A stretch of DNA of 64,000 bases from Verrucomicrobiia bacterium (GTDB taxonomy: Bacteria; Verrucomicrobiota; Verrucomicrobiia; Limisphaerales; JADLHS01): the NCBI GenBank assembly GCA_011525685.1, contig WYBW01000022.1, forward strand, positions 186,001 to 250,000, given 5' to 3'. The notes under the pieces are model-generated. The model saw nothing but the letters and a program-made list of their open reading frames with translations. It was not told the DNA's origin and did no database searches. This document shows, piece by piece, positions 5,416 through 23,227 of the stretch (its first letter is position 1; each line of letters starts with the position of its first letter). The position numbers were made by a program, and so were the translations under genes.

Positions 5416-8316
5416 CTAAAAGCCGTATTTGTTCTTTCTGAGTTCAAATGCTTGCCGTCCACCTTCCATGATCGTCGTAATAGTCTCGCGCACGGGCGCA
5501 CAATCAATTGACCCAACTGGATCAATTTTTCCACGAGTGTTGTCCCCTGCATCACGATAACCAAAGCAAACGACAAGTTCTGCGTCGCCATTGACCACGA
5601 TATTGGCATTATGACTCACGAACAACAGTTGTCGGTTGTGTTTTGTCTCCGCGATCCGACCAGACAGCACATGAATCTGTTCGTTGTCGAGGTCTTCCTC
5701 GGGCTGGTCAATTAGCAGCGGCGCTCCCGACTGGGCCAGCAGGGTGCGGAGGAGGCAGGTTGCCTGTTGTCCTGGTGAGGCGGAATCGAACGGGATGTAG
5801 TTGTCCGTTCCGTCGGCTTTCTTCCCAAGGCGAAAGGCAAATTTGATTTGATCGCCGATGTTTATGAATCGGATTTGCTCCAAGCCATCTTGGGTCACTC
5901 CATTTCGGATAGATTCCACATTTGCATCGGTGAAACCCGCCGCCTTGAGCATCGGTGTAGCCGGGAGAGCACCAGTTCCTTTGCTTTTGAAAAGAGTGTC
6001 GAGTTCAGCCATGCCTTCGGACCACTTCTCAATTGGATGCGCAGCGTTGCATACGGTAGAGGCCAAGGTGCTGACTTTTTGGTCGCTGTCTTTCACATTT
6101 CGGCCTTGGATCAAGGTTTCCAAGGCGATACGAACTGGATGCTCATCCCCACAAAAGGCAAGTTCTGCCTTGAACTCGTGTTGGGCCTGCTCGCTGATAA
6201 GCTGACACTGTTTCCGTAACAAGTCGGCGCGTTCCTGGAGTGCAGTCAAAAAGGAATTCCAGTGAGTATTTCCCACCTCGTCGAATACAACTTTCAGCGT
6301 GTTGCGCTCCGATTCCAAAGCGGCGTGCTTGGTTTCGAGGTCAGAAACCTGCTTATTGAGATTTTGAATCTCATCGAGTTGTTTCTTATTTTTGGCACTT
6401 TCCGTGACACACTTGTCGTAGTCGGCTTGGTGTTTCGTGAACGCCGTTCGCAATTCGTCCAGCGCAGGCTTGTTCGCAGCCGCCAGCCACGACCCGGATG
6501 AAGCCTCGGTAATCAGAGCGTCAAGTTGACCGAGAACCTTTTGGAGAAAGGCGTTTGCGTCGCCAGATACTTTTTGAACCTTCACGAGGTCGGGGAGTTG
6601 CTCCGGGAGTGTGATTGCGCCCAACGCAATAGCCTGGTTGCGTGTTTGCTCCAACAATTCAGAGGTCTTCTTGGGCAATTCAACCGCCCGTGTTAACCAC
6701 TGATCCTGCTGGCTCAAAAGATCGTGGGCCTGAATAATGGTTTGCTGTTCGGGCGTGAGGGATTGCAGTTGCGATTGGAGTGCTTGCACCTGCTCCTTTT
6801 TGCTTTTGATGGTGACTGCGATTTCCCCCAACTGAATGTTCAGGTTCGACAGCCGTAGTTCTCTCGTTCGTTGTTCCTTTATTTGGGGAAGAACAGTCTT
6901 ATCAATCCGATCCTGAATCTGCGCCAGACCTTCCTTCACCGGGTCGGTAATCAGGCGATTGATTTCCTCTGGCAGCGTCCCAACACAACTCAATTGCTTT
7001 TGGGCATACGAAACGATCGGAAACTCCCGCCGGACTTGCTCCGGCGTCATTGTTTGAGAAGCCCCGTTGGGATCAAATACGACAATGGTGTCAGCTTTGT
7101 CGGTGATTGTTCTCTCGATGCGATAAACGACTTCGTTCCTCTTGTAGAAGACACTCACCTTTGCGTTCGCCGGCTTAAGCGTGCCATCAATCAAAGCCTT
7201 GCGCCGTTTCTGAAAGTTCGGCAGTTCGGTCGAATCAGCAACTGGAGGATCATCGCAAAGTGCCCACCGGATATATTCGAGAAGCGACGATTTTCCCGTG
7301 CCGCGCCCCCCAATGAGGGCATTGAACTGTGGATTGAGGCCGAGATTGACTGGGCCAAGAAACTGACTTTCGCTTACCGTGACGCCAACAACTTGGAGCA
7401 GCGGGAACGCTGGCTCTGAATGGCTGATGCGAGAGCGGCGCGCCAAACATGCTTGGCGCAAAGCTTCAGCGGACGGCTCTGCCCATTTCACCCAAGTCGG
7501 CCATGCACCCAAATCAGAAAACTCGATTACTGTTTGACCGTTCACCGCTTTGGCTACGGCGGTCCTACAGTCCGATGTTTGAAAAACTCCTAACGCCCGA
7601 TTCCCCCACTGCGAGATTTTGCCTTCAACCTTTGCCCTATTGCCATCGTCAAGCTCGGCATAAAGGCAACCTTCGATGTATCCGCCAACGCACGGCATTG
7701 AAACAAAGTGCGGATGAAATCCATCTCGTAAGATTGATTTGTGCCCACCCTTTTTCACGTTGGGCAAAAGAATGAATCTGCCCTCCAAAAACTTGAATTT
7801 CGCTGGGTTCGTTTCTTCGGGGTTGATTCTGATTGAATTCAGCGCCTTCGTGATCTCGCCGAGGTTCAAGTCCGTGTGAAGGGCCAAGGTTTGCGTCGTC
7901 TTTGGACTCGCCGCTGGGGTAGGCGTTACCCGAAGCGCTCCCCAAATATGATTCAGCATTTCTTCGGACAAGCCGGGATCGAAAATCAAAATGGCCTGAC
8001 AGGATGGTGTGGCCAATGTCAATTCGACACCGGGAAAAACGACCAGACGGTCGTGCACCGGATACGGATTGCCGTCCTGTTGCTTTTCTGCTTGAGCAGC
8101 ATCATGGACGGTCTTCCAAAGGCACAAATCGTGATGGTCGGTGATGGCGACAGCTTGAATACCCTTGCGCCTGCAATCGGAAACAAGTGCTTCTGCAAAT
8201 GCGCCTCGATTGCCAATCAAGTCCGCAAACGGACCACTCCAGTTCGCGTCGCGCAGCGTGTGAACTTGAAAATCGCACTTCCGAAAGCGAGCACCTTTGT
8301 CCGGTTGCATACGCAT
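5416..8316 (-). CDS. PHP-domain SMC/Rad50-like ATPase (TrlF family)
   Basis: This 966-residue protein has a PHP phosphoesterase domain (about residues 10-280), with DFQVHT and the metal motif ITDHHDL. An ABC-type ATPase follows, split by a long coiled coil. Walker A is GGRGTGKS (336-343), heptad-rich helices run about 440-700, the ABC signature region is SASPGQQAT, and Walker B is LLIDQPEEDLDN (about 867-878) followed by a VSHN switch. This is the layout of TrlF-like proteins, thought to sense and cleave nucleic acid or nucleotides and often found in defence or mobile islands. The frame opens at 8433, but conserved sequence begins at ATG 8316. That start also removes an overlap with the upstream coupling-protein gene. 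Last gene of a five-gene minus-strand operon. Confidence 0.85.
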   Translation of the reverse strand: MRMQPDKGARFRKCDFQVHTLRDANWSGPFADLIGNRGAFAEALVSDCRRKGIQAVAITDHHDLCLWKTVHDAAQAEKQQDGNPYPVHDRLVVFPGVELTLATPSCQAILIFDPGLSEEMLNHIWGALRVTPTPAASPKTTQTLALHTDLNLGEITKALNSIRINPEETNPAKFKFLEGRFILLPNVKKGGHKSILRDGFHPHFVSMPCVGGYIEGCLYAELDDGNRAKVEGKISQWGNRALGVFQTSDCRTAVAKAVNGQTVIEFSDLGAWPTWVKWAEPSAEALRQACLARRSRISHSEPAFPLLQVVGVTVSESQFLGPVNLGLNPQFNALIGGRGTGKSSLLEYIRWALCDDPPVADSTELPNFQKRRKALIDGTLKPANAKVSVFYKRNEVVYRIERTITDKADTIVVFDPNGASQTMTPEQVRREFPIVSYAQKQLSCVGTLPEEINRLITDPVKEGLAQIQDRIDKTVLPQIKEQRTRELRLSNLNIQLGEIAVTIKSKKEQVQALQSQLQSLTPEQQTIIQAHDLLSQQDQWLTRAVELPKKTSELLEQTRNQAIALGAITLPEQLPDLVKVQKVSGDANAFLQKVLGQLDALITEASSGSWLAAANKPALDELRTAFTKHQADYDKCVTESAKNKKQLDEIQNLNKQVSDLETKHAALESERNTLKVVFDEVGNTHWNSFLTALQERADLLRKQCQLISEQAQHEFKAELAFCGDEHPVRIALETLIQGRNVKDSDQKVSTLASTVCNAAHPIEKWSEGMAELDTLFKSKGTGALPATPMLKAAGFTDANVESIRNGVTQDGLEQIRFINIGDQIKFAFRLGKKADGTDNYIPFDSASPGQQATCLLRTLLAQSGAPLLIDQPEEDLDNEQIHVLSGRIAETKHNRQLLFVSHNANIVVNGDAELVVCFGYRDAGDNTRGKIDPVGSIDCAPVRETITTIMEGGRQAFELRKNKYGF

Positions 8317-8377
8317 ATTAAGGGGGAAACGAATAGGAGCGGAAAGGCTTTTCTGACAACGCCAGCGCAATCCATGC

Positions 8378-9856
8378 TCAAAACAATCGACGCCAACGAG
8401 AAAACCATTTGGAAATGTTTCCATCCGCCTCAAGCGGTGGAAGCGTCACCCGGCGGAAGCCACGTTCGCAATGGACAAGGACGCACTCGTGGTCGCGGAG
8501 ATTGCGGAGTTTGTGCGGCTTGATCTTGTGTTCCTCGGTTTCGGAGTAGTTCACGTTGCGCTTGCCGGCGCTGAATCCCCACGAGCGTTTCACCACGCGC
8601 TTCTTGCCGATGAAGTCGGCGGCTTGGACGGCATCGGCTTCATCGGCGGCGCGGAAGATGAGGCGGTTGCGGAGATTGAGCGTGAGCACCTTCGCCTTGT
8701 CGTTGCCAAGCGGCGGCACGAGTGATGTTGTGCTCTGGGCGGCGGCAACGACGGTTGCGCCTGCTTCGCGAATCACGTCCACGCAGTTGTAGTCGCTCGT
8801 GCCGTCTTCGCTGGCGGTCATGAACCGCTGCGCTTCGTCAGCCCATAGGATGAGCAAATTGTTTTTCGCACGGTCAGTCTTGGCTTTGTCAAAGCGGCGC
8901 AACGCGTGGTTGTAGAATAGCAGCTTCAGGAACGTGTTCACATAACGGCGCTCGGTCTGGAATTTCTGCGGCATCGTCGTGAGGATGATTTTGCCCTGGT
9001 CAATCGCGGCGAAGTCGAACGTGCTTTCGCCGGTGCAGAATACCTCGGCGACTTCCGGCGTCAGGAAGTATTGCAGATAGTTGCCGATGGTTTCGCGCAC
9101 ACCGCCAAGCTGCTCGTCGGGTTGGTTGAGAAACCGGTTGCCGAAGTGCGCGTAAACAGCGGCGCGGCGCGGGGTTTCGAGCAGGCTCTCAAGGTTCTCC
9201 ATTTCCTCGGCGAGAAGCTCGCGGTCGGAGAGCAACTCGAAAGCACCGGTCAACGTGACGGGGCGATTCAACTCGAACAGCATTTCGAGCGCATGGGCGA
9301 TGTGCGTCTGCGCCTGGCTCTTGAAGAATCCCTTGTCGCCGCCCTGGCCGAGGCTCGTGGCGGTGTCCACGATGAATTTGGCGTAGGTCGTAAACGGGAT
9401 GCTGCGGTCGCCGGTAAGGTTGTAGCGATTCGGTGGCGTCCATTGGGCGTCCGTATCGCCGGAACGGATTTGCAAATGAATCAAGTCGTGGTCGCGACCA
9501 TAGTGTGACGCCATTGCGGAGAGCGTTTCCCAATAGACGCCCTTCTCGTCAATGCACAGGCCGCCCCACGTCGGCTCGTTTTGGAATACTTGGTGGGCAA
9601 GTTGATTGATCCCGGAACTGGTCTTGCCAGAGCCGGTGTCACCGGTGATGAGCCAGCCGCGACAGAATTGATTCCGCTTCCACCTCAAGCCGCCGAGCTT
9701 TGCAACATGGCTATTGCGGGGCGTCGCGAGCAAGAGGCGCACCGCCATAATCACCAGCAGAATTCCAAAGCCGAGCAGAACTGGCCGAAGGTGTTTCGAC
9801 ATCAGCCATTCCGCCGGAAACGTGATTGGACCAACGGGCATGAAGGGAAGTTTCAC
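8378..9856 (-). CDS. TraG/TraD-like coupling ATPase
   Basis: This 492-residue protein has one N-terminal transmembrane segment (about residues 24-44), then a RecA-like motor domain: Walker A GDTGSGKT (72-79) and Walker B LLILWADEAQRF (334-345). These features match type IV coupling proteins and related conjugative ATPases, which bring relaxase-bound DNA to a secretion channel at the inner membrane. It overlaps the gene upstream by four bases. With the MobF relaxase at 14659 it forms a minimal mobilization set, because no other type IV secretion genes are in the window. Confidence 0.85.
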   Translation of the reverse strand: MKLPFMPVGPITFPAEWLMSKHLRPVLLGFGILLVIMAVRLLLATPRNSHVAKLGGLRWKRNQFCRGWLITGDTGSGKTSSGINQLAHQVFQNEPTWGGLCIDEKGVYWETLSAMASHYGRDHDLIHLQIRSGDTDAQWTPPNRYNLTGDRSIPFTTYAKFIVDTATSLGQGGDKGFFKSQAQTHIAHALEMLFELNRPVTLTGAFELLSDRELLAEEMENLESLLETPRRAAVYAHFGNRFLNQPDEQLGGVRETIGNYLQYFLTPEVAEVFCTGESTFDFAAIDQGKIILTTMPQKFQTERRYVNTFLKLLFYNHALRRFDKAKTDRAKNNLLILWADEAQRFMTASEDGTSDYNCVDVIREAGATVVAAAQSTTSLVPPLGNDKAKVLTLNLRNRLIFRAADEADAVQAADFIGKKRVVKRSWGFSAGKRNVNYSETEEHKIKPHKLRNLRDHECVLVHCERGFRRVTLPPLEADGNISKWFSRWRRLF

Positions 9857-14297: not shown

Positions 14298-14576
14298 TCA
14301 GATGCGGATGCCGCGCGAGGATTTGTGCGCGAGTTCCTGCCGATGACGTGGATACTTTTTGAGGACGGACTGTGCCAGCGTTACAACTTCCGGTGCAATC
14401 GGGTGTGCCCACGGATCGCTAAAGCCGAGTTTTGCGGCAGCTTCCTCAGCCGCAAGTTTCGTTGGCGCTTCAATGGTAGTGCGAAGTGGGTCGCCTAACT
14501 CGCGGGCATACTCCCGGTCAATGTGGTAGATGCCCCACAGTTGGTTGCCGGGCATCGCTGTCGCGGTCGTGCTCAT
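14298..14576 (-). CDS. Small uncharacterised protein divergent from the relaxase
   Basis: This is a 92-residue product from ATG 14576, with a GTG alternative at 14582. Residues 10-25 (GNQLWGIYHIDREYARE) and a conserved-looking C-terminal helix are the only distinct features. It forms a two-gene unit with the 84-residue gene downstream and is transcribed away from the relaxase across an 82-base gap. Such small genes beside a relaxase often encode relaxosome accessory factors, but no family is recognised here. Confidence 0.55.
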   Translation of the reverse strand: MSTTATAMPGNQLWGIYHIDREYARELGDPLRTTIEAPTKLAAEEAAAKLGFSDPWAHPIAPEVVTLAQSVLKKYPRHRQELAHKSSRGIRI

Positions 14577-14658
14577 GCCCACAGTTCAGCACAATCCGCA
14601 TTTGCGAAGATGTATCAGCTACACAAAATGCGCGGGCAGTCCGTGTAGTGTCCGGTGT
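14577..14658. promoter_or_regulatory. Divergent intergenic region, candidate oriT
   Basis: This 82-base spacer separates the relaxase from the divergent small gene. It contains GCATTTGCG, ACACAAAATGCGCGGGCAG and GTGTAGTGTCCGGTGTGTGG. MobF relaxases commonly nick near their own gene, and the G/T-rich GTGTAGTGTCC is loosely like a TrwC-type nic region. This is a weak resemblance, given as a pointer only. Promoters for both directions must also lie here. Confidence 0.25.
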
Positions 14659-17511
14659 GTGGTCACGGCAAAGACGCAATACAACCTCAAGAACGCAGAG
14701 GAATACTTCGAGGAGCATCTGGCTGTCGGGGACTACTACGATGAAGGTCAGCGCATCGCCGGCGAGTGGATTGGGTTGGGCGCGCAACGGCTGGAATTGT
14801 CCGGGAAGGTCCGCGCCGAGGATTTCCTGCGGCTGTGCGAGAATCAGCATCCAAGCACGGGTGAAACGCTGACGCAACGGCTGAACACGACGCGGACGGA
14901 AGACGGCGAAAACGCGGCCAATCGGCGGATATTCTACGACTTCACATTCTCTCCGCCGAAGTCGGTTTCCATCGCGGGACTGATTGGGGAGGACAAAAGG
15001 ATTTTGGAGGCGCACGCGCGGGCCGTGAGGTCGGCGTTGCGGGAATTCGAGGCGTTTGCCGCGACGCGCATTCGCACTGGTGGAGCGCAAAGCGACCGCC
15101 TGACCGGCAACTTCGTGACAGCGTTGTTCACGCACGATACGTCTCGCGCCCTCGACCCGCACCTGCACACGCATTGCATCGTGTTCAACGCGACCTTCGA
15201 CGGGACAGAAAACCGCTGGAAGGCGCTCCAGAATTACGAACTGCTGCGTGCCAGAAAGTTTGCCGAGAACGCTTACTATCACGAACTCGCTCGTGAACTG
15301 CGGGCTTTCGGCTACCGCGTTCGCAATCGGGCTCGCGGTGATTTTGAAATCGAAGGCGTCTCCAACGACCTGTGCGAGCGATTCTCGAAGCGGCACACAC
15401 AGATTGATGAGGCGCTTGCCAAGCTGCTCGCGGACAAGCCTGAACTCACCGGTGGAAACTTTCAGGATTTGCGCGAGCAACTGGCGACGACGGAGCGATC
15501 CCGGAAACAGAAAACCCTGAGTCACGACGAACTCCGACGACTGTGGGAAGCGCAGTTGAACAGGACTGAGCAAGCGGCTTTGCAGCGGCTTTCAAGTTTA
15601 CCGGACCTGGACGTGAAGGAGAAAAAGGGCCACACGGTCAGCGAGGCCGTTCAATGGGCCGAGGATCATTTGTTCGACCGGAATTCGGTCGTGCTTGAAT
15701 GTCAGTTGTGGCAGGAGGCATTGGGTCGGGCGCGCGGCGAAGGCTTCTCCATTATCGAACTCAAGGATTTCACCCGGCGGCGCGGCTACATACGAGACGA
15801 GGACCGCTCCGGTGCGGTCACGATGCGCGAAGTGTTGCTGCGTGAATGGGAGATCGTTCAGACCGCGAAAGAAGGCGTCGGCGAATGCTGGCCGCTCGTG
15901 CCCAATCCCCAACCCACAAATCCGAAGCTTGATGACGAACAGCGCAAGGCACTCGAAGGATTACTCAGCTCGACCAATCTGGTTTCTATTTTTCGTGGCG
16001 GCGCGGGCACGGGCAAAAGTTTTGTTCTGCGCGAGCTGGTCGAGCAACTACGGGAGTCTGGCCGGCGCATCGCCGTTCTCGCGCCGCAACGCCAGCAGGT
16101 CGTGGAAATGGAGAAGGCGGGTTTCCCATCTCCGGCGACGGTCGCCAGCTTTCTTACCAAGGCTGAGTTGCAGGAGCGCGCGGTAATCATCGTGGACGAG
16201 GCTGGCCAGATTGGAGGGCGTCAAATGCTGGCATTGCTCCGCCTGGCCAAGAAGCGGAATGCCCGCGTTGTTCTATCGGGCGACACTCGGCAGCATGGTG
16301 CGGTGGAAGCATCCGATGCGCTGCTTGCCATCGAGCGACATGCAGGCGTGAAGCCGGTGGAGTTGCACAAGATTCGCCGCCAAGACCCCGGCCTTGGTCG
16401 CGATAACAGCGAGCGCGCCAGCATCAAGCGGTATCGGAAGGCGGTTGAGTCCGCAGCGGCTGGAAGACTGGCGGAATCCTTCAAACGGCTGGACCTAATG
16501 GGCGCGGTCGTTGGGTGCGGCTTGGGCGAACAAGCCGACAAGCTCGCCGACGAACACCTTCGCCTCACCGAGCAAAACGCCTCGGTGGTCGTAGTGTCAC
16601 AGACCTGGGGCGAGGTGCATCGAGTGAATACGCGAGTTCGCGAGGCGCTCAAAGCAAAGAGATTGCTCGGCGCGAATGATACCGCAGTTGAAGTCCTCGA
16701 ACGTGTTGACCTGACCAATGCGCAGAAGCGCGACGAACGATTCTACCCGCAAGGTGCGGTCATCGTCTTCAACCAGAAAGTGCGCGAAGCCGATGCCGGG
16801 GCGAAAGGCAAGCTGTCGGGGATACTCAAAACCGGGCTGCTCGTGGAAGTCGGTGGGCGATTCGTCACGGTATCGAACAAGATGCTCGACCACATTTCGG
16901 TCTGTCAGACACGCGAAATTGCTGTCGCGACCGGCGACCGGCTGCACCTGAAAGCCAATCGCAAACTCGCAACGGGTGGCCGCGTCACAAACGGCGAGCT
17001 TGTCGCGGTGAAATCGGTTCGCTCTGATGGCAGCATTGAACTCACCGATGGCCGGGTGTTGGACGCGAGCTTCCGCGAGTTCCTGCCGGGCTACGCCGTC
17101 ACGTCCTACGGCTCGCAAGGCAAAACAGTGGATTACGTTTTGTTTTCCGACTCCACCATCAAGGCTGCGACCAACGCGCAGCAATGGTATGTGACCATTT
17201 CGCGCGGCCGGCGCGGCATCCGCATCTTCACACCGGACAAAGAGCAATTGCGTGAGAACGTCACCCGCTCCGGGCATCGCCCGCTTGCGATGGAACTCGC
17301 CGCTGGCTTAACCCATCGGCGCGGTCTTCGCCTCTGGGATCGGCTGCATGGTTACATGCTGCGCTTTGGCCGTCGTGCTGCTGACAACTTCTGTCGCCTG
17401 AAACTTTCCCGTCATCGTCATCAACCCGTTGAAACCCATGAGCACAAAATCACCCGAATGTTGGGCGAGCGATCCGAACGCTCGCGCGGTCAAAATCGAA
17501 GTATCGGCTGA
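14659..17511 (+). CDS. MobF-family relaxase/helicase (TrwC/TraI type)
   Basis: GTG 14659 is chosen over the upstream open frame because family similarity starts there. The 950-residue product has an N-terminal TrwC relaxase domain with candidate nicking tyrosines Y16, Y26 and Y27 (EYF, DYYDEG) and the three-histidine metal site H168, H170, H172 (DPHLHTHCIVFN). A RecD2-like helicase domain follows, with Walker A GGAGTGKS (447-454) and DEAG (513-516). It nicks at oriT, stays covalently bound to the 5' end and unwinds the strand for transfer. Its partner is the coupling ATPase at 8378. The C-terminal 60 residues are basic and probably unstructured. Confidence 0.95.
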   Translation: MVTAKTQYNLKNAEEYFEEHLAVGDYYDEGQRIAGEWIGLGAQRLELSGKVRAEDFLRLCENQHPSTGETLTQRLNTTRTEDGENAANRRIFYDFTFSPPKSVSIAGLIGEDKRILEAHARAVRSALREFEAFAATRIRTGGAQSDRLTGNFVTALFTHDTSRALDPHLHTHCIVFNATFDGTENRWKALQNYELLRARKFAENAYYHELARELRAFGYRVRNRARGDFEIEGVSNDLCERFSKRHTQIDEALAKLLADKPELTGGNFQDLREQLATTERSRKQKTLSHDELRRLWEAQLNRTEQAALQRLSSLPDLDVKEKKGHTVSEAVQWAEDHLFDRNSVVLECQLWQEALGRARGEGFSIIELKDFTRRRGYIRDEDRSGAVTMREVLLREWEIVQTAKEGVGECWPLVPNPQPTNPKLDDEQRKALEGLLSSTNLVSIFRGGAGTGKSFVLRELVEQLRESGRRIAVLAPQRQQVVEMEKAGFPSPATVASFLTKAELQERAVIIVDEAGQIGGRQMLALLRLAKKRNARVVLSGDTRQHGAVEASDALLAIERHAGVKPVELHKIRRQDPGLGRDNSERASIKRYRKAVESAAAGRLAESFKRLDLMGAVVGCGLGEQADKLADEHLRLTEQNASVVVVSQTWGEVHRVNTRVREALKAKRLLGANDTAVEVLERVDLTNAQKRDERFYPQGAVIVFNQKVREADAGAKGKLSGILKTGLLVEVGGRFVTVSNKMLDHISVCQTREIAVATGDRLHLKANRKLATGGRVTNGELVAVKSVRSDGSIELTDGRVLDASFREFLPGYAVTSYGSQGKTVDYVLFSDSTIKAATNAQQWYVTISRGRRGIRIFTPDKEQLRENVTRSGHRPLAMELAAGLTHRRGLRLWDRLHGYMLRFGRRAADNFCRLKLSRHRHQPVETHEHKITRMLGERSERSRGQNRSIG

Positions 17512-17823: not shown

Positions 17824-18666
17824 TCATTTTGAATTGGGCAGCGGGCGAAGAATGGTTACAACCCCAAATCGTCCGAGCCGAAGTGCTTCTTCTTGGACGA
17901 TGATGTCCTGCTGGCTTCCCGGATACACGCCATTGAACCAGAATGATGCGAGCGAAACGGATGCCTTGGGTTCGCAATAGGCGTTAGGGTTGTCGGCGAT
18001 TGCCAACGAGGTGGCACAGTCTGGCGGCAGCAAGTCCGAGCGTGTCATCAGGTGATGCAGGCCAATGTTTCGGAAAGCCACATTCACCTCGGTCCACGGC
18101 GGCTTTCCATTTCTCCAGTATGCCAGGGCGACCGGTTGAGTGTTGTGTTCAACAAATCGGATCGCCGCACTGGCACAGGAAACGTTGAACTCCTTCACGA
18201 TACCTCGGATGCCTTCCAATCCGGGCGGCTGCTTGGAAAAAACGGCGCTGAACCTTGCGGCGGGCATCAGCAAGTGCGAGGCAAACAGGTCGGCTTCCTG
18301 TTCGACGATGCGCTCGGCATCCGGTTGATCGGCGATTGAGAAATGCGCTGGAGCGCCGGCCAGCAAAGCGTTGCGGTGCTCATCAATGAAATAGTGGCCA
18401 AGTTCGTGCCCCTGTGTGAACCGTGCTCTTGGTGAAGTCAGATTTCCCAGCCTGTCGAGGTTGCAGAAGATGTGAAATCTCCCCTTGCGGTGCTCAAGCA
18501 TTCCGTCGAAGCCATCGCCATAGTAATTTGCGGAGTGGGTGATGTGCTTGTTGCCCATGATGCAAATTGGATCAATGAACCGGGCCGGGCAGTGCGTCTC
18601 CGCAACCGCCTCGGCGAGCGCGATGATTTCCTGCCGCCGCGCTGGGGTGACTTTGCTTCTGCTCAT
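17824..18666 (-). CDS. ImmA/IrrE-family metallopeptidase
   Basis: This 280-residue protein has the zinc-protease motif HELGH (87-91) inside FTQGHELGHYFIDEH, and the third ligand Glu in VEQEADLFASHLLMP (E124), which is the ImmA/IrrE hallmark. Members cut a repressor or antitoxin in response to stress, for instance in ICE induction, radiation response and CBASS control. It overlaps the 124-residue gene upstream by four bases, and a sigma-factor-like gene precedes that one. The small protein is therefore the natural candidate substrate. The C-terminal 130 residues may be a sensor domain of unknown ligand. Confidence 0.88.
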   Translation of the reverse strand: MSRSKVTPARRQEIIALAEAVAETHCPARFIDPICIMGNKHITHSANYYGDGFDGMLEHRKGRFHIFCNLDRLGNLTSPRARFTQGHELGHYFIDEHRNALLAGAPAHFSIADQPDAERIVEQEADLFASHLLMPAARFSAVFSKQPPGLEGIRGIVKEFNVSCASAAIRFVEHNTQPVALAYWRNGKPPWTEVNVAFRNIGLHHLMTRSDLLPPDCATSLAIADNPNAYCEPKASVSLASFWFNGVYPGSQQDIIVQEEALRLGRFGVVTILRPLPNSK

Positions 18667-19037
18667 TTCTCGTCCGTTAAGCCCTTCTCGGCATTGGCGC
18701 GATCCTGCTCCATTTGCTTTCGGACTTCGTCCGTGATCTGGCCGCCGTTTCGCGCCGCCATCGCCAGCAGTTCGTTTTCAACTTCGGGCGATGTTTTACC
18801 GAACAGCGAAACGACCTTGGAACTTTCCTCTGTCTTTTGATTCCTGACTCTGGCCAGCAGCCGGGCAGGATCAATGCTCTGAACCTCGCTGGGATCAATC
18901 TCGGCTTCGAGGTTGCGGATGTCTTCTTCAGACACGGGGAAGACTTTTCCGTCTTCTCGAAGAACCTGATGCAGCAGGCTTTCAAGCTCTTCGCCCGTGA
19001 TGCCTTTCTTTGCCGGGTTCTCACCGTGGTTATTCAT
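18663..19037 (-). CDS. Small acidic protein between a sigma factor and an ImmA/IrrE protease
   Basis: This is a 124-residue product from ATG 19037, with AAGGA a few bases upstream; the longer frame lacks such support. It is acidic and helical (ELESLLHQVLRED, SEEDIRNLEAEIDPSEV, EVENELLAMAARNG). It carries no recognised domain and no HTH motif. Being locked between the sigma-like gene (34 bases upstream) and the protease (4-base overlap), it may act as an anti-sigma factor or protease substrate. This is inference from gene order. Confidence 0.65.
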   Translation of the reverse strand: MNNHGENPAKKGITGEELESLLHQVLREDGKVFPVSEEDIRNLEAEIDPSEVQSIDPARLLARVRNQKTEESSKVVSLFGKTSPEVENELLAMAARNGGQITDEVRKQMEQDRANAEKGLTDEK

Positions 19038-19071
19038 AATTCCTTTCGTTGTTGCGTCACTTGTGTGGTGG

Positions 19072-19758
19072 TTATGTTTTGGTTTCAAGATACTCTTCCA
19101 ATTTTCGGAGGAGTCTTCCTCTCTTCGTCTTAATGCTTTCTGGTGTCGTCCCCATCGAATCGGCAAGCCCCGCCAGAATGTCGTCGGGAATGTGGGCTTT
19201 GCCTGTCTTGAAGTCGTAGAAATTCATCGAGATTACCAGCATCTCGCTGTCGGCCTCGGGCAGCGCCTCAAGGAATGTCCGAACTGCCGCTTTTTTGCTT
19301 TGGAGGGCGCGAAGGTCGAACCGTTCGGGAGCTTTTTCTGGCAGTTGAGCTTGAGCCTCGGCTTCTTCCTGTTCCTTTCGGGTGGGAGCTTCCTGTTTCC
19401 TCTCTGGCTTGCGGAACTCCATCAGGAACTCGTTTTTGGCAATCTGGAAAAGCCAGGCCTGGATTTTTAACCGCAGCTTTTCAGGCGACAGACCGGACGG
19501 GGCATTGAACGAACCGGCCTTCACAAACGCCTTTTCAAAGGTTCGCAGGACAAAGTCGTCGGGATTCCAACCCAAAGCCCGGAAGCCGTTCTTTTCCGCA
19601 AAACCGAGGAGCGTCGTCTGGAATCGGCGGAAGAATTCCGCCAAGGCTGCTTCCGCGTCCTCTCGGTTTTCATCCTTGAAGGTCATCCGAAGCAGCAGAT
19701 CCAAATCGTCTGCTGCTCCGGCGGCCTGTTCTTCAGCTACAGTCGCGTTTTCTCGCAT
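19072..19758 (-). CDS. Sigma-70-like regulator
   Basis: ATG 19758 has a good ribosome site (AAAGGTG) upstream; the frame extends further but without support. The 228-residue product has a region-2-like helix pair (DDFVLRTFEKAFVKAG, then KIQAWLFQIAKNEFLMEFRK, about 67-117). A Glu/Gln-rich linker (118-145) follows, then a region-4-like HTH (ILAGLADSMGTTPESIKTKR, 194-213). It is more divergent and longer than ordinary ECF factors. It is transcribed divergently from the ubiquitin-like operon across 137 bases, so it may switch that operon's promoter. Confidence 0.75.
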   Translation of the reverse strand: MRENATVAEEQAAGAADDLDLLLRMTFKDENREDAEAALAEFFRRFQTTLLGFAEKNGFRALGWNPDDFVLRTFEKAFVKAGSFNAPSGLSPEKLRLKIQAWLFQIAKNEFLMEFRKPERKQEAPTRKEQEEAEAQAQLPEKAPERFDLRALQSKKAAVRTFLEALPEADSEMLVISMNFYDFKTGKAHIPDDILAGLADSMGTTPESIKTKRGRLLRKLEEYLETKT

Positions 19759-19895
19759 AGGACACCTTTCTCCACCCTGTAAATGCGACTTGGTAACACC
19801 GGCCTTGGTTTGGCCGGCAGCACCATCCGCCCCCCTGCCTGTTACCTGCCCGCATATATTTGGGTGGAGGCACAACCGCCTTCGGAAAGATAGAA
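19759..19895. promoter_or_regulatory. Divergent control region of the ubiquitin-like operon
   Basis: This 137-base region drives the sigma/small protein/protease module to the left and the Ubl-E2/JAMM-E1/DUF6527 operon to the right. It contains an inverted repeat with 6-base arms, CCGGCC and GGCCGG, at 19799-19817, which could be an operator. An A/T-rich CATATATTTG sits near 19853. The ribosome site GGAAAG (19884-19889) belongs to the right-hand operon. Confidence 0.45.
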
Positions 19896-20669
19896 ATGCC
19901 TATGGAAAAAGAACATTCAAAAACAGGAAACAGCGGACAGCTTCCGGCCAACCCTGAAGCTGTTGAAGTGGAGGAACTCGACGTTGAGGAATTCTCCAAG
20001 ATGCACGGCGGCAAGCCGCCCAAGGCCAAGAGATACATCATCCGCATTGACCGGGAAAAATACACGGTCAACGTGCCGGAAATGACGGGTCGCCAGATTT
20101 TAGAACTGGCGAAGAAGCTGCCGCCAGAGAATTGGCTCTTGAATCAAAAACTCAAGGGCGGTCGAGTCGTGGCCATCGGCCTCAACGACGTGGTGGACTT
20201 CACCGCACCTGGCGTGGAGCGATTCATCACGCTGCCGAAAGACCAGACGGAAGGATTTCAGAATCCGCGTCGTGAATTCCGCCTCCCAGAGGCGGATGTT
20301 GCCGGGCTTGATGACGGTGGCCTCCATTGGGAGACCGTGAAGGCTGGCAACGATGCGGGTTGGGTATTGGTTCACGGGTATCGCGTGCCCAGCGGTTACA
20401 ACGTCGAATCAGTGTCGGTAGCCGTCCAGATTCCTGGCGGCTACCCGACCGCTCAGTTGGACATGGCCTTTTTTCATCCGCCATTGAGCCGTAAAGATGG
20501 ACGCGGCATTCCCAACACGGAGGCAACCGCCAACATTGACGGGAAAAGCTGGCAGCGATGGTCACGCCATTACACACCAGCCAATCCTTGGATTCCTGGC
20601 GAATACAACGTGCTGACGCATTTGGTGCTGGTGAAACATTGGCTGGAGCGTGAATTCCAACGCAACTGA
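19896..20669 (+). CDS. Ubiquitin-like domain fused to an E2-like domain (multiubiquitin + Prok-E2)
   Basis: Start ATG 19896 has GGAAAG at the right spacing; ATG 19902 is also possible. The 257-residue product has a beta-grasp ubiquitin-like domain at about 44-118 (KRYIIRIDREKYTVNVPE, GRQILELAKK, GVERFITLP). An E2/UBC-like domain at about 128-255 follows (VLVHGYRVPSGYNVESV, VQIPGGYPTAQLDM, FFHPPLSRKDG, GKSWQRWSRHY). These match the bacterial multiubiquitin and Prok-E2 families. There is no cysteine anywhere, so a classical E2 thioester is impossible; serines such as S198 or S218 would have to serve, or the E2 acts otherwise. The Ubl is followed by T118-E119-G120 rather than a free GG end. Confidence 0.88.
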   Translation: MPMEKEHSKTGNSGQLPANPEAVEVEELDVEEFSKMHGGKPPKAKRYIIRIDREKYTVNVPEMTGRQILELAKKLPPENWLLNQKLKGGRVVAIGLNDVVDFTAPGVERFITLPKDQTEGFQNPRREFRLPEADVAGLDDGGLHWETVKAGNDAGWVLVHGYRVPSGYNVESVSVAVQIPGGYPTAQLDMAFFHPPLSRKDGRGIPNTEATANIDGKSWQRWSRHYTPANPWIPGEYNVLTHLVLVKHWLEREFQRN

Positions 20670-20672
20670 ACG

Positions 20673-22058
20673 ATGAAGTCATATCATCTGCGATTCACCG
20701 CGCAACAGGTCGAGGAACTGCGCCGCCACTTATTCCCCGGTGACGGCAAGGAAGCGGTGGCACTCGCATTATGTGGCCGACGAGACGACGACAGCATCCA
20801 TATACTCTGTGTCCACAAATTGCTGTTGATCCCTCATGACAAATGCCACGAGCGACATCCCTTGCGAGTGCATTGGCCAACTGACATTGGCCGGCCGATT
20901 TACGAGGAGGCGATGCGGAAGCACATGGCTGTGCTCAAGATTCATAGCCATCCGGGTTATTACCGCCAATTCTCGGAGGTTGACGACCGATCGGATGCGG
21001 AACTTTTTAGCTCACTGCACGGGTGGACTGACGATGGTATGCCTCACGCCAGCGCCGTCATGCTACCCAACAAGGAAATGTTCGCCCGGGTGATAACGGC
21101 GGATTTGCAGTTCGTGGCTGTGAGTCGTATCGCCGTGGCAGGAGATGAAATCGCTTTTTTTGACTTTGCCCCATCACGCAAGGAAATCGCCTCGAAAGAC
21201 CTGAGAACCGCCCAGGCGTTCGGGGAAAAAACCGTTGCGCTGCTCAACTCGCTTCGAGTGGGCGTGGTGGGGTGCTCCGGGACGGGAAGTTGGGTCATCG
21301 AGCAACTCGCGCGGCTCGGTGTCGGGGAATTAGTTTTGGTTGACCCTGACATCATTGAACACAAGAACCTCAATCGCATCGTCAACTCCACCCTGGAACA
21401 AGCCGAGAGTAAGACGCCTAAAGTCGAGGCACTTGAGTCGGCGATTCGTCGCATCATGGGAACATGCACACAGGTCACACCTTCGGCCAAAAATCTCTTT
21501 CACACGGGCGTGCTTCAAAAGCTGGCGACGTGTGACGTGCTGTTTGGCTGCATGGATACGGTGGATGGACGTGATATTCTCAATCGGCTGGCCACGTTTT
21601 ACCTCATTCCCTATTTTGACTTGGGGGTTCGTTTGGACGCCGACGGAAAAGGTGGCGTCAATGTTGTTTGCGGCTCGGTGCATTTTCTGTCGCCTGGCGG
21701 ATCAAGCTTGTTGTCCCGTCGCGTTTATGGCCCTGAAGCACTACGGGCCGCTTCGTTACGCAGAACCAACCCAGAACAGTTCACTGCCGAAGTAGATGAG
21801 GGCTACATCAAGGGAGTGAAAGTGGAAAGCCCCGCAGTCATCAGCGTCAATGGTCTGTGTGCGACGCTCGCGGTGAACAATCTGTTGGCCCGCCTCCACC
21901 CCTTTCGCATTGATCCCAACAACGAAATCCGTCACCAATGGTTTGATCTCATCAACGGCATCTTTGGAAACGGCAACGGTGGCGAGCCCTGCCGCGTTCT
22001 CCAGCTTTACGCCGGACGTGGCGACATAGAACCCTTCTTGGATTGCCATTTCGGATGA
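20673..22058 (+). CDS. JAMM/JAB isopeptidase fused to a ThiF/E1-like activating enzyme
   Basis: This 461-residue protein is a fusion. Residues 1-165 form a JAB domain with the full JAMM zinc set: E27, then HSHPGYYRQFSEVD (H91, H93, S101, D104). Residues about 185-460 form an E1/ThiF adenylation domain: VVGCSGTGS (198-206), LVDPD with D224, the NLNR contact (232-235) and CMDTVDGR (293-300). E1 enzymes adenylate the Ubl C-terminus and JAMM peptidases remove Ubls. The crossover region has SSLLSRR (344-350), where related proteins often have a CxxC. It starts 3 bases after the Ubl-E2 gene and overlaps the DUF6527 gene by four bases. Confidence 0.95.
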   Translation: MKSYHLRFTAQQVEELRRHLFPGDGKEAVALALCGRRDDDSIHILCVHKLLLIPHDKCHERHPLRVHWPTDIGRPIYEEAMRKHMAVLKIHSHPGYYRQFSEVDDRSDAELFSSLHGWTDDGMPHASAVMLPNKEMFARVITADLQFVAVSRIAVAGDEIAFFDFAPSRKEIASKDLRTAQAFGEKTVALLNSLRVGVVGCSGTGSWVIEQLARLGVGELVLVDPDIIEHKNLNRIVNSTLEQAESKTPKVEALESAIRRIMGTCTQVTPSAKNLFHTGVLQKLATCDVLFGCMDTVDGRDILNRLATFYLIPYFDLGVRLDADGKGGVNVVCGSVHFLSPGGSSLLSRRVYGPEALRAASLRRTNPEQFTAEVDEGYIKGVKVESPAVISVNGLCATLAVNNLLARLHPFRIDPNNEIRHQWFDLINGIFGNGNGGEPCRVLQLYAGRGDIEPFLDCHFG

Positions 22059-22396
22059 TCATCAAGCGGTTCATCCTCCTGCTGAAAGCCGCGTGGGCAA
22101 GGTTGCCCGTGGGTCGGCGTTGGAATGTGGAGCGGGTCAGTGACGAGCCGGAGATCGTGAAGCCGCGAATCGTGTATTTGGTGGGTGAAGCTGAACCTTG
22201 GGTCGCAGTATTCCAATGCCCGTGTGGGTGTGAGAAAAACATCTGGCTAAACTTGCTCAAGGAGCATCGGCCTCGGTGGAGTGTGACTGTGAACCAGAAT
22301 GGTCGCCCAACTGTATCGCCTTCAATCAATCGGCGAGTCGGATGTCGCAGCCACTTCCTCTTGATGAATGGAAGAATCAAGTGGTGTTCGCGATGA
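22055..22396 (+). CDS. DUF6527 metal-binding protein of ubiquitin-like operons
   Basis: This 113-residue protein starts at ATG 22055, in an ATGA overlap with the E1 gene. It has the compact pattern CPCGC (C55, C57, C59) and PSINRRVGCRSHFLLMNGRI (89-108, with C97 and H100), then C111. These suggest a zinc ribbon and match the DUF6527 family, which is repeatedly found beside bacterial Ubl/E2/E1-JAB genes. The function of the family is not established; possibilities are a substrate adaptor or E3-like factor. The N-terminal helix is basic and hydrophobic. Confidence 0.85.
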   Translation: MIIKRFILLLKAAWARLPVGRRWNVERVSDEPEIVKPRIVYLVGEAEPWVAVFQCPCGCEKNIWLNLLKEHRPRWSVTVNQNGRPTVSPSINRRVGCRSHFLLMNGRIKWCSR

Positions 22397-22458: not shown

Positions 22459-23001
22459 TTAGTAAAAATAGCCCAAACTGCGAAGACTGGTGTGGTTTGG
22501 GTTTCCAAGGACGATGTGATCGAGGACTTCGATTTTGAGAAGTTGGCCCGCTCGAATGAGGTCGCGGGTGATTTTAATGTCGGCTTCGGATGGTGTCGGT
22601 TCGCCACTCGGATGATTGTGCGCGATGATGATTGCGGCGGCACTCGCCATGATTGCTAAACGGAATACCTCCCTCGGATGACAAAGAATTGTATCCATTG
22701 TTCCAATGGACACCAGATAGTGCCCCTTGATGCGCCGCCGTGTGTTGAGGATGAACACCACCAGACATTCACATTCAGAATTGAAGTAAGGATGAGTCGC
22801 GATATGCGCTTTCCAATAGGCGGCTGCCTGATCCGGTGTTTCACACTGTTGCATAGTGTCGGGTGTGGGACATTCCCGAAGTGAAACAATCTTCCATTCC
22901 TGTGGTTGAGCCGGGAATTTGATTGGCTTGACGATGTTGTTTGCGGGCTGCGGAGCGGTTGCGGTGCATCCATTGGCGATGAGGTTTTCCGTTGTGTTCA
23001 T
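22459..23001 (-). CDS. RadC-type JAB domain protein
   Basis: This is a 180-residue product from ATG 23001. The longer frame runs into a palindrome and is not used. Residues about 75-180 form a RadC/JAB metal-dependent domain with HNHPSGEPTPSEAD (HxHP...SxxD) and CLVVFILNTRRRIKGHYLVS. Such short RadC-like proteins, lacking the N-terminal HhH part of chromosomal RadC, are common on plasmids and mobile islands. Their biochemical role is unknown. The leader upstream is highly structured (22978-23227). Confidence 0.88.
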   Translation of the reverse strand: MNTTENLIANGCTATAPQPANNIVKPIKFPAQPQEWKIVSLRECPTPDTMQQCETPDQAAAYWKAHIATHPYFNSECECLVVFILNTRRRIKGHYLVSIGTMDTILCHPREVFRLAIMASAAAIIIAHNHPSGEPTPSEADIKITRDLIRAGQLLKIEVLDHIVLGNPNHTSLRSLGYFY

Positions 23002-23227
23002 GTTTTGCGTTTCGTTCCGAAGGAGCGGGACTGCTCTCTTCACCCGCCCGGAGAGAGCAGACCCGCTCCTGACGAAACGCACCCGTCTGCGCCCGCGCCG
23101 CCGGGCAGCGGAGCATCAGCAACGAAGTGACAGCGGGCGCAAGATGTTGCGACCGCTGGCGCGAGGTTGCGCGGAGCAACCAGAGGCGCGGGTGCAGACG
23201 GGATGAACACAACGGATAACCTCATCT
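22978..23227. repeat. 250-bp three-arm palindrome around the radC-like start
   Basis: The outermost arms (22978-23002 and 23203-23227) are inverted copies matching at 23 of 25 positions by my reading; the left arm includes the start codon and first codons of the RadC-like gene. Inside are two long hairpins. Hairpin A (23007-23080) has a 9-bp outer stem, a 19-bp inner stem with one mismatch and a 12-base loop. Hairpin B has 18-nt arms (23082-23099 and 23185-23202) with one mismatch. Together they can fold as a three-way junction. Confidence 0.8.

What the first reader, a model, noticed from the sequence alone, without database searches (positions are those of the whole stretch)
19896..22396. 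Three-gene bacterial ubiquitin-like conjugation operon
Sequence shows a Ubl-E2 fusion, a JAMM-protease-E1 fusion and a DUF6527 protein in one tight operon (3-base gap, then ATGA overlap). Known families: multiubiquitin, Prok-E2, JAB (H91, H93, S101, D104 intact) and ThiF/E1. Related bacterial operons (the Bil/Bub-like groups, and type II CBASS with an E1-E2-JAB set) modify proteins, and some defend against phage. The compression into only three genes, and its carriage on a MobF mobilizable element, are worth attention. The exact target is unknown.
Basis: partly seen in the sequence, partly recalled or inferred. Interest (0 to 1): 0.9.

Follow-up and report, generated by a model that had tools for sequence, protein, structure and literature searches.

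The report
Bub ubiquitin-like operon with sigma-factor switch
A bacterial protein-tagging operon of a recently described kind (Bub), which probably makes its ubiquitin-like tag and its E2-like helper as one chain and cuts them apart, sits next to a conserved sigma-factor/small-protein/protease trio that probably switches it on and that also stands beside other defence genes; this trio appears to be undescribed.

Summary
It is a Bub (bacterial ubiquitination-like) operon, not a new kind: gene 2 matches the solved Citrobacter BubCD (E 6e-78), gene 1 matches BubA + BubB, gene 3 is DUF6527. The architecture, Ubl-E2 fusion included, was catalogued in 2006 (Iyer et al., row 6e). The fused 'E2' has no cysteine; its predicted fold is E2/UEV-like. 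Among 44 aligned Bub loci the JAB residues are invariant and the Ubl nearly always ends in glycine, fused or not; fusion/fission happened repeatedly, so the fusion is best read as a precursor cut after G120.

A divergent triad (ECF sigma, ~125-aa protein, CapP-like ImmA protease; 17824-19758, minus strand) moves with the operon as one six-gene block. This sigma family occurs at 11 places in two overlapping genome samples (320 and 388), always with the other two genes, always beside Ubl operons or known/candidate defence genes (one CBASS). A mirrored DNA element in the divergent gap occurred 7 times in 925 kb, only at such loci. That the protease frees the sigma by cutting the middle protein is inference. 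The published Bub controllers (CapW, CapH+CapP, CapK+CapS) do not include it.

The parts
19896..20669 (+). bubAB: single Ubl (residues 47-120, ends TEG120) fused to Cys-less E2/UEV-like BubB (about 123-257)
   Evidence: Pfam, PDB BubA/BubB matches, AF2 fold
20253..20258 (+). codons G120|F121: predicted JAB cleavage point separating Ubl from BubB (inferred)
   Evidence: G120 aligns to the last residue of most separate bubA products; Citrobacter PDB chains split after the matching Gly229
20673..22058 (+). bubCD: JAB metalloprotease domain (11-125) fused to E1-like ThiF domain (180-332)
   Evidence: Pfam; Citrobacter BubCD 9ea4_A E 6.3e-78
22055..22396 (+). DUF6527 protein, putative zinc finger C55-x3-C59-x37-C97-x2-H100
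   Evidence: Pfam; conservation in 42 sequences; AF2 model without PDB fold match
19072..19758 (-). ECF-type sigma factor (start ATG at 19758; the longer TTG start at 19875 is unlikely)
   Evidence: family profile hits ECF sigma structures (1h3l 2.4e-5); homologues L030, L032, L053, L096 over the Sigma70_r2 cut-off
18663..19037 (-). 'mid' protein (~125 aa), putative anti-sigma / protease substrate (inferred)
   Evidence: conserved (FPxSEEDI-like and AARNGG-like motifs) at all triad loci of this sigma family
17824..18666 (-). CapP-like ImmA/IrrE metalloprotease
   Evidence: Peptidase_M78 47.4 bits; PADLOC capP E 3e-40
19840..19869 (+). control element facing bubAB: TGTTACC-N4-CGCATATA...GGGTGGAG
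19770..19798 (-). mirrored copy facing the sigma gene: TGTTACC-N4-CGCATTTA...GGGTGGAG
14530..17511 (+). MobF/TrwC relaxase-helicase of the carrier element (context)

Best explanation
A six-gene cassette: a Bub protein-conjugation operon plus its own switch. Conjugation half: BubAB is made as one chain; the JAB domain of BubCD cuts after G120, giving a Ubl ending in TEG and free BubB; the E1 domain adenylates G120; transfer goes by a non-thioester route in which BubB acts as a non-catalytic E2/UEV-like scaffold and an E1 residue other than Cys (nearly invariant Y378 is the best candidate) may carry the tag; JAB may also remove tags; DUF6527, a putative zinc finger, is the best candidate for substrate choice. 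Switch half: the ECF sigma is held by 'mid'; when the CapP-like protease is activated (by analogy, by single-stranded DNA after damage or infection) it cuts 'mid', freeing the sigma to transcribe both its own genes and bubAB-bubCD-DUF6527 from the mirrored element. Shown here: homology, fold, fused architecture, conserved residues, co-transfer, mirrored element. Inferred: cleavage, transfer chemistry, anti-sigma role, inducing signal, phage defence.
For: Bub membership: BubCD E 6e-78 over 11-427, BubB E 2e-26, BubA Ubl; BubB-domain model vs 9eae_C Z 21, TM 0.88/0.93. Precursor reading: bubA ends at the Gly in most loci with separate genes; all fused ones with a recognised Ubl carry Gly at the junction; JAB HHSD 44/44; the Citrobacter-type 362-aa fusion equals BubA ending at Gly229 plus BubB from E230, and BubB residues are numbered 234-361 in the PDB; at least 5 fusion/fission changes on well-supported branches; dN/dS 0.08 for the fused gene against a relative with the same fusion, dS near saturation. 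No Cys in BubAB; Y378 nearly invariant, and 9eav BubCD has Phe at that site. Switch: conserved triad; similarity to another family's genome covers 17987-22364 only; 11 sigma-family places, each with mid and ImmA; mirrored element at 7 triad loci and nowhere else in 925 kb; the half-site pattern occurs 3 times in the 6.7-Mb own genome, two of them this pair; sigma identity.
Against: No experiment. 'mid' has no recognised anti-sigma domain. The element's two boxes are about 5-7 bp apart, shorter than usual ECF promoter spacing (own knowledge), so it could be an operator instead. Its pattern was refined on some of the loci it is scored on; L034 and L091 keep one good arm, and L053 and L096 did not match. 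Some separate BubA proteins have short tails after the Gly and L063 lacks it. Shared ancestry explains part of the co-occurrence for the closest loci. The Ye 2026 and Gong 2025 Bub papers could not be read here, so details of the mechanism may already be settled, or differ.
Confidence: 0.72

Rival explanations
1. The fusion works uncut: BubB stays tethered to the Ubl and the intact chain does the work without exposing the glycine.
For: The fused gene is under purifying selection and fusion is common.
Against: The junction keeps the Gly found at the free C-terminus of separate BubA proteins, JAB residues are invariant, and the Citrobacter chains are split at this point.
Confidence: 0.12
2. The neighbouring ImmA system is a CapH+CapP-like module: a DNA-binding repressor is destroyed by the protease, rather than a sigma factor released.
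For: PADLOC capP match 3e-40; CapH+CapP is a known Bub controller; the short box spacing of the element would suit an operator.
Against: The gene facing bubAB is an ECF sigma by profile; neither it nor mid shows an HTH repressor domain.
Confidence: 0.2
3. The triad regulates something else (for example plasmid transfer) and lies beside Bub only because both ride on mobile elements.
For: MobF, TrwB and ParA genes nearby; triads also occur without Bub.
Against: The divergent arrangement recurs at 8 Ubl operons; the element faces both genes; the relative L091 shares only the six genes.
Confidence: 0.08
4. The Bub operon is a general stress-response modifier rather than an anti-phage system (independent of the mechanism above).
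For: Bub has not been shown to protect against phage (PMC13373217).
Against: Sporadic distribution, mobile carriage, exchangeable controllers shared with CBASS.
Confidence: 0.35

Closest known systems
Citrobacter Bub (BubA/BubB/BubCD; PDB 9ea4, 9ea5, 9ea8, 9eae, 9eav; Ye et al. 2026, cited in PMC13373217)
   Same: Fused BubAB, JAB-E1 BubCD, Cys-less E2-like BubB, DUF6527 gene next
   Different: One Ubl here against three there; controller is sigma/mid/ImmA here against, by position in the related plasmid L064, a CapK/CapS-like pair
Operon type 6e of Iyer et al. 2006 (PMC1779556)
   Same: Ubl + inactive E2/RWD-like + JAB-E1 + metal-binding protein 'Y'; fusion of Ubl with the E2-like domain already noted
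   Different: The passages read here do not mention a sigma/ImmA controller
CapH+CapP, CapW, CapK+CapS controllers (PMC13373217)
   Same: Adjacent genes that control an immune operon; CapP-like ImmA protease
   Different: ECF sigma and a small protein in place of an HTH repressor; not in the published list of Bub controllers
CalpL/CalpT/CalpS of type III CRISPR (PMC12751052, PMC11417357)
   Same: Protease, anti-sigma and sigma logic in a defence setting (search-result level only; details from own knowledge)
   Different: ImmA-type metalloprotease, no SAVED/Lon domain, no CRISPR
Bil (bacterial ISG15-like) operons
   Same: Ubl, E1, E2 and JAB protease
   Different: Bil E2 has a catalytic Cys (PMC11354881); here there is none

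Membership tests
Bub | Multi_ubiq-type Ubl ending in Gly | tested here: met
   PF14452 48.6 bits; G120 aligned to the free C-terminus of BubA
Bub | E2-like BubB without catalytic Cys | tested here: met
   PF14462 114.8 bits, no Cys in the protein, model matches 9eae_C Z 21
Bub | JAB-E1 fusion BubCD with intact JAB site | tested here: met
   E 6e-78 to 9ea4_A; HHSD intact
Bub | DUF6527 partner gene | tested here: met
   PF20137 81.2 bits; present in 42 of 44 loci
Bub | Covalent conjugation of targets | not testable with these tools
   needs biochemistry
Bil | E2 with catalytic Cys | tested here: not met
   no Cys in gene 1
Type II CBASS | E1-E2 fusion (Cap2) with CD-NTase in the operon | tested here: not met
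   E1 is fused to JAB, not to an E2; the operon has no cyclase gene
CapH+CapP | CapP-type ImmA protease | tested here: met
   PADLOC capP 3e-40
CapH+CapP | HTH repressor CapH next to it | tested here: not met
   neighbours are an ECF sigma and 'mid'; no HTH Pfam hit
ECF sigma factors | sigma-70 region 2 (and region 4) | tested here: met
   family profile hits ECF structures; homologues L030, L032, L053, L096 over the Sigma70_r2 cut-off, window protein alone below it
CalpL/T/S | SAVED-Lon protease | tested here: not met
   protease is Peptidase_M78

The most novel reading that the evidence does not exclude
The sigma-mid-ImmA trio is a further class of defence-operon controller: regulated proteolysis frees an ECF sigma that turns on Bub, CBASS and other operons. 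In other phyla the protease part is fused to a UvrD helicase and nuclease, which could sense damaged or foreign DNA directly.
Probability: 0.6. Interest if true: 0.72.

Novelty: new variant of a known kind. Interest (0 to 1): 0.57.

Why it matters
Bub is a Cys-independent relative of ubiquitination whose trigger and role are unknown. A dedicated sigma factor with a recognisable DNA element gives a way to turn a Bub operon on at will, to ask what it tags, and to find other defence operons under the same control by searching for the element and the trio.

Tried and rejected
Phage and IMG/VR collections: no real Bub relative. Second Bub in the own genome: none. DUF6527 fold: AF2 model pLDDT 84.8 but no Foldseek match with E under 0.001 (best 0.23), VIA best Z 3.3; fold not assigned. 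Papers on DUF6527 or BubCD: none in the library; Ye 2026 and Gong 2025 not held. Paper search for ECF sigma with ImmA in defence: no such module among the titles listed. Ntn-hydrolase idea for the third gene of L003/L066: PDB profile search gave nothing, so left open. Mirrored-repeat test alone: 0 of 100 shuffles reached the window's value, but 3 of 60 random window pieces scored as high, so the specific pattern is the stronger evidence.

Full report
Observation. Pfam finds Multi_ubiq and Prok-E2_E in gene 1, Prok-JAB and ThiF in gene 2, and DUF6527 in gene 3, all over their curated cut-offs. Gene 1 has no cysteine.

Identity. By sequence, gene 2 is a relative of Citrobacter BubCD of PDB 9ea4 (E 6e-78), the second half of gene 1 of BubB (E 2e-26) and its first half of the BubA Ubl. 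An AlphaFold2 model of the BubB part (pLDDT 89.8) matches 9eae_C with Z 21 and 1.3 A rmsd, then E2 and UEV folds at Z 8-9. So this is a Bub operon. The same architecture, with the fused variant, is row 6e of Iyer et al. 2006, PMC1779556. PMC13373217 reports 544 Bub operons, 219 with CapW or CapH+CapP and 59 with CapK+CapS, and states that phage protection by Bub has not been demonstrated.

Survey. Bub loci were gathered from genomes and plasmids. In 44 aligned loci the JAB residues H91, H93, S101, D104 are invariant; the Ubl ends in Gly with few exceptions among the 43 loci with a matched Ubl domain; BubB has no conserved Cys but an invariant or nearly invariant W222-S223-R224-H225; and the E1 crossover region keeps Y378 in all but L034, with no conserved Cys there. 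The 9eav BubCD chain has Phe at the Y378 position, which may be an engineered mutant; from that and its conservation I infer that Y378 is a candidate for the acyl-carrying residue. DUF6527 keeps C55, C97, H100 (invariant) and C59 (nearly).

Fusion. Of 47 loci on a BubCD tree, 19 are fused by my sorting; the tree needs 8 changes and its well-supported branches force at least 5. Repeated fusion and fission with an unchanged Gly and an unchanged JAB fits a precursor that is cut. Citrobacter supports this: the 362-aa plasmid protein equals BubA 1-229, ending in Gly, plus BubB from residue 230, and the PDB numbers BubB 234-361. Cleavage itself is not shown here.

The neighbour triad. Divergent to bubAB lie an ECF sigma (19072-19758), a 125-aa protein (18663-19037) and a CapP-like ImmA protease (17824-18666; PADLOC capP 3e-40). 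The sigma family profile hits ECF sigma structures and homologues pass the Sigma70_r2 cut-off. The triad recurs at L030, L031, L032, L034, L091 and L093 next to Bub. L091, from another family of the order, has the same fused BubAB and 78% identical BubCD; nucleotide similarity to the window covers 17987-22364 and stops there, which marks the six genes as one transferable block. Searching 320 genomes of the order and 388 of the phylum, two overlapping sets, with the sigma profile gave 11 places at E <= 1e-12. All 11 carry mid and ImmA: 7 beside Bub (the window included), L098 beside a Multi_ubiq + DUF6791-ThiF + DUF6527 operon, L097 beside a CBASS cyclase (PADLOC 9e-96), L096 beside a PDC-M30B candidate, L053 beside a Schlafen AlbA_2 gene.

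More distant look-alikes exist: L013, L033 and L060 have a sigma-like gene, a small gene and ImmA; L061 and L065 have a 1140-aa ImmA-UvrD-PDDEXK fusion as third gene. Their sigma-like proteins are linked by pairwise matches and L061 passes the Pfam cut-off, but L013, L033, L060 and L065 do not, so these are weaker cases.

DNA element. The gap 19758-19896 holds two outward copies of TGTTACC-N4-CGCATnTA...GGGTGGAG. In the own genome TGTTAC-N(12-22)-GGTGRAG occurs three times and two of these are this pair. A mirrored pattern (TGTNAY-N4-9-CGYW, outward pairs) was found 7 times in 925 kb of loci held, each time in a triad gap: window, L030, L031, L032, L093, L097, L098. The pattern was refined on part of this set, so the count overstates its independent weight; L091 was fetched after the first pattern and matched it on one side.

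Mechanism. I propose a Bub conjugation unit under a sigma factor held by mid and released by ImmA cleavage. CapP proteases are reported to be activated by ssDNA (PMC13373217), and the ImmA-UvrD-nuclease fusions point the same way. CalpL/CalpT/CalpS is a precedent for a protease, anti-sigma and sigma switch in defence (and own knowledge). The role of mid, the signal and the target remain inferred.

Verdict. The Bub operon is a member of a known kind with a known fusion; together with its sigma-type controller I rate it a new variant of a known kind.

Noticed in passing
L061:111-3545, L065:158-3577, L004:1409-4921: Proteins of about 1140-1170 aa joining an ImmA (M78) domain, a UvrD helicase and a PD-(D/E)XK nuclease beside Bub operons; in L061 and L065 they follow a sigma-like gene and a small gene.
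   Followed up: partly
L003:2638-3987 and L066:1679-3112: A 450-478 aa protein (51% identical, MTSEVVVMN...ALASDSAATV) lies beside Bub where ImmA would be; the start resembles proteasome-type Ntn hydrolases, but no PDB profile match was found.
   Followed up: partly
L097:2952-4313: The same sigma-mid-ImmA triad and mirrored element near a CBASS oligonucleotide cyclase.
   Followed up: yes
L098:5344-7715: A Ubl operon with DUF6791-ThiF instead of JAB-ThiF, DUF6527 and no recognised E2 gene, under the same triad; it has no JAB and its Ubl is not fused, as the precursor model would predict.
   Followed up: partly
L094:6528-8580: A decayed Bub operon with stop codons in bubCD in a genome of the same order.
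   Followed up: no
window 5422-8433, minus strand: About 1000-aa protein with SMC/AAA ATPase matches and a weak PHP match near the mobility genes; might be a defence ATPase.
   Followed up: no
window 22462-23082, minus strand: RadC-like JAB protein directly downstream of the Bub operon, convergent; absent from the similarity block shared with L091.
   Followed up: no
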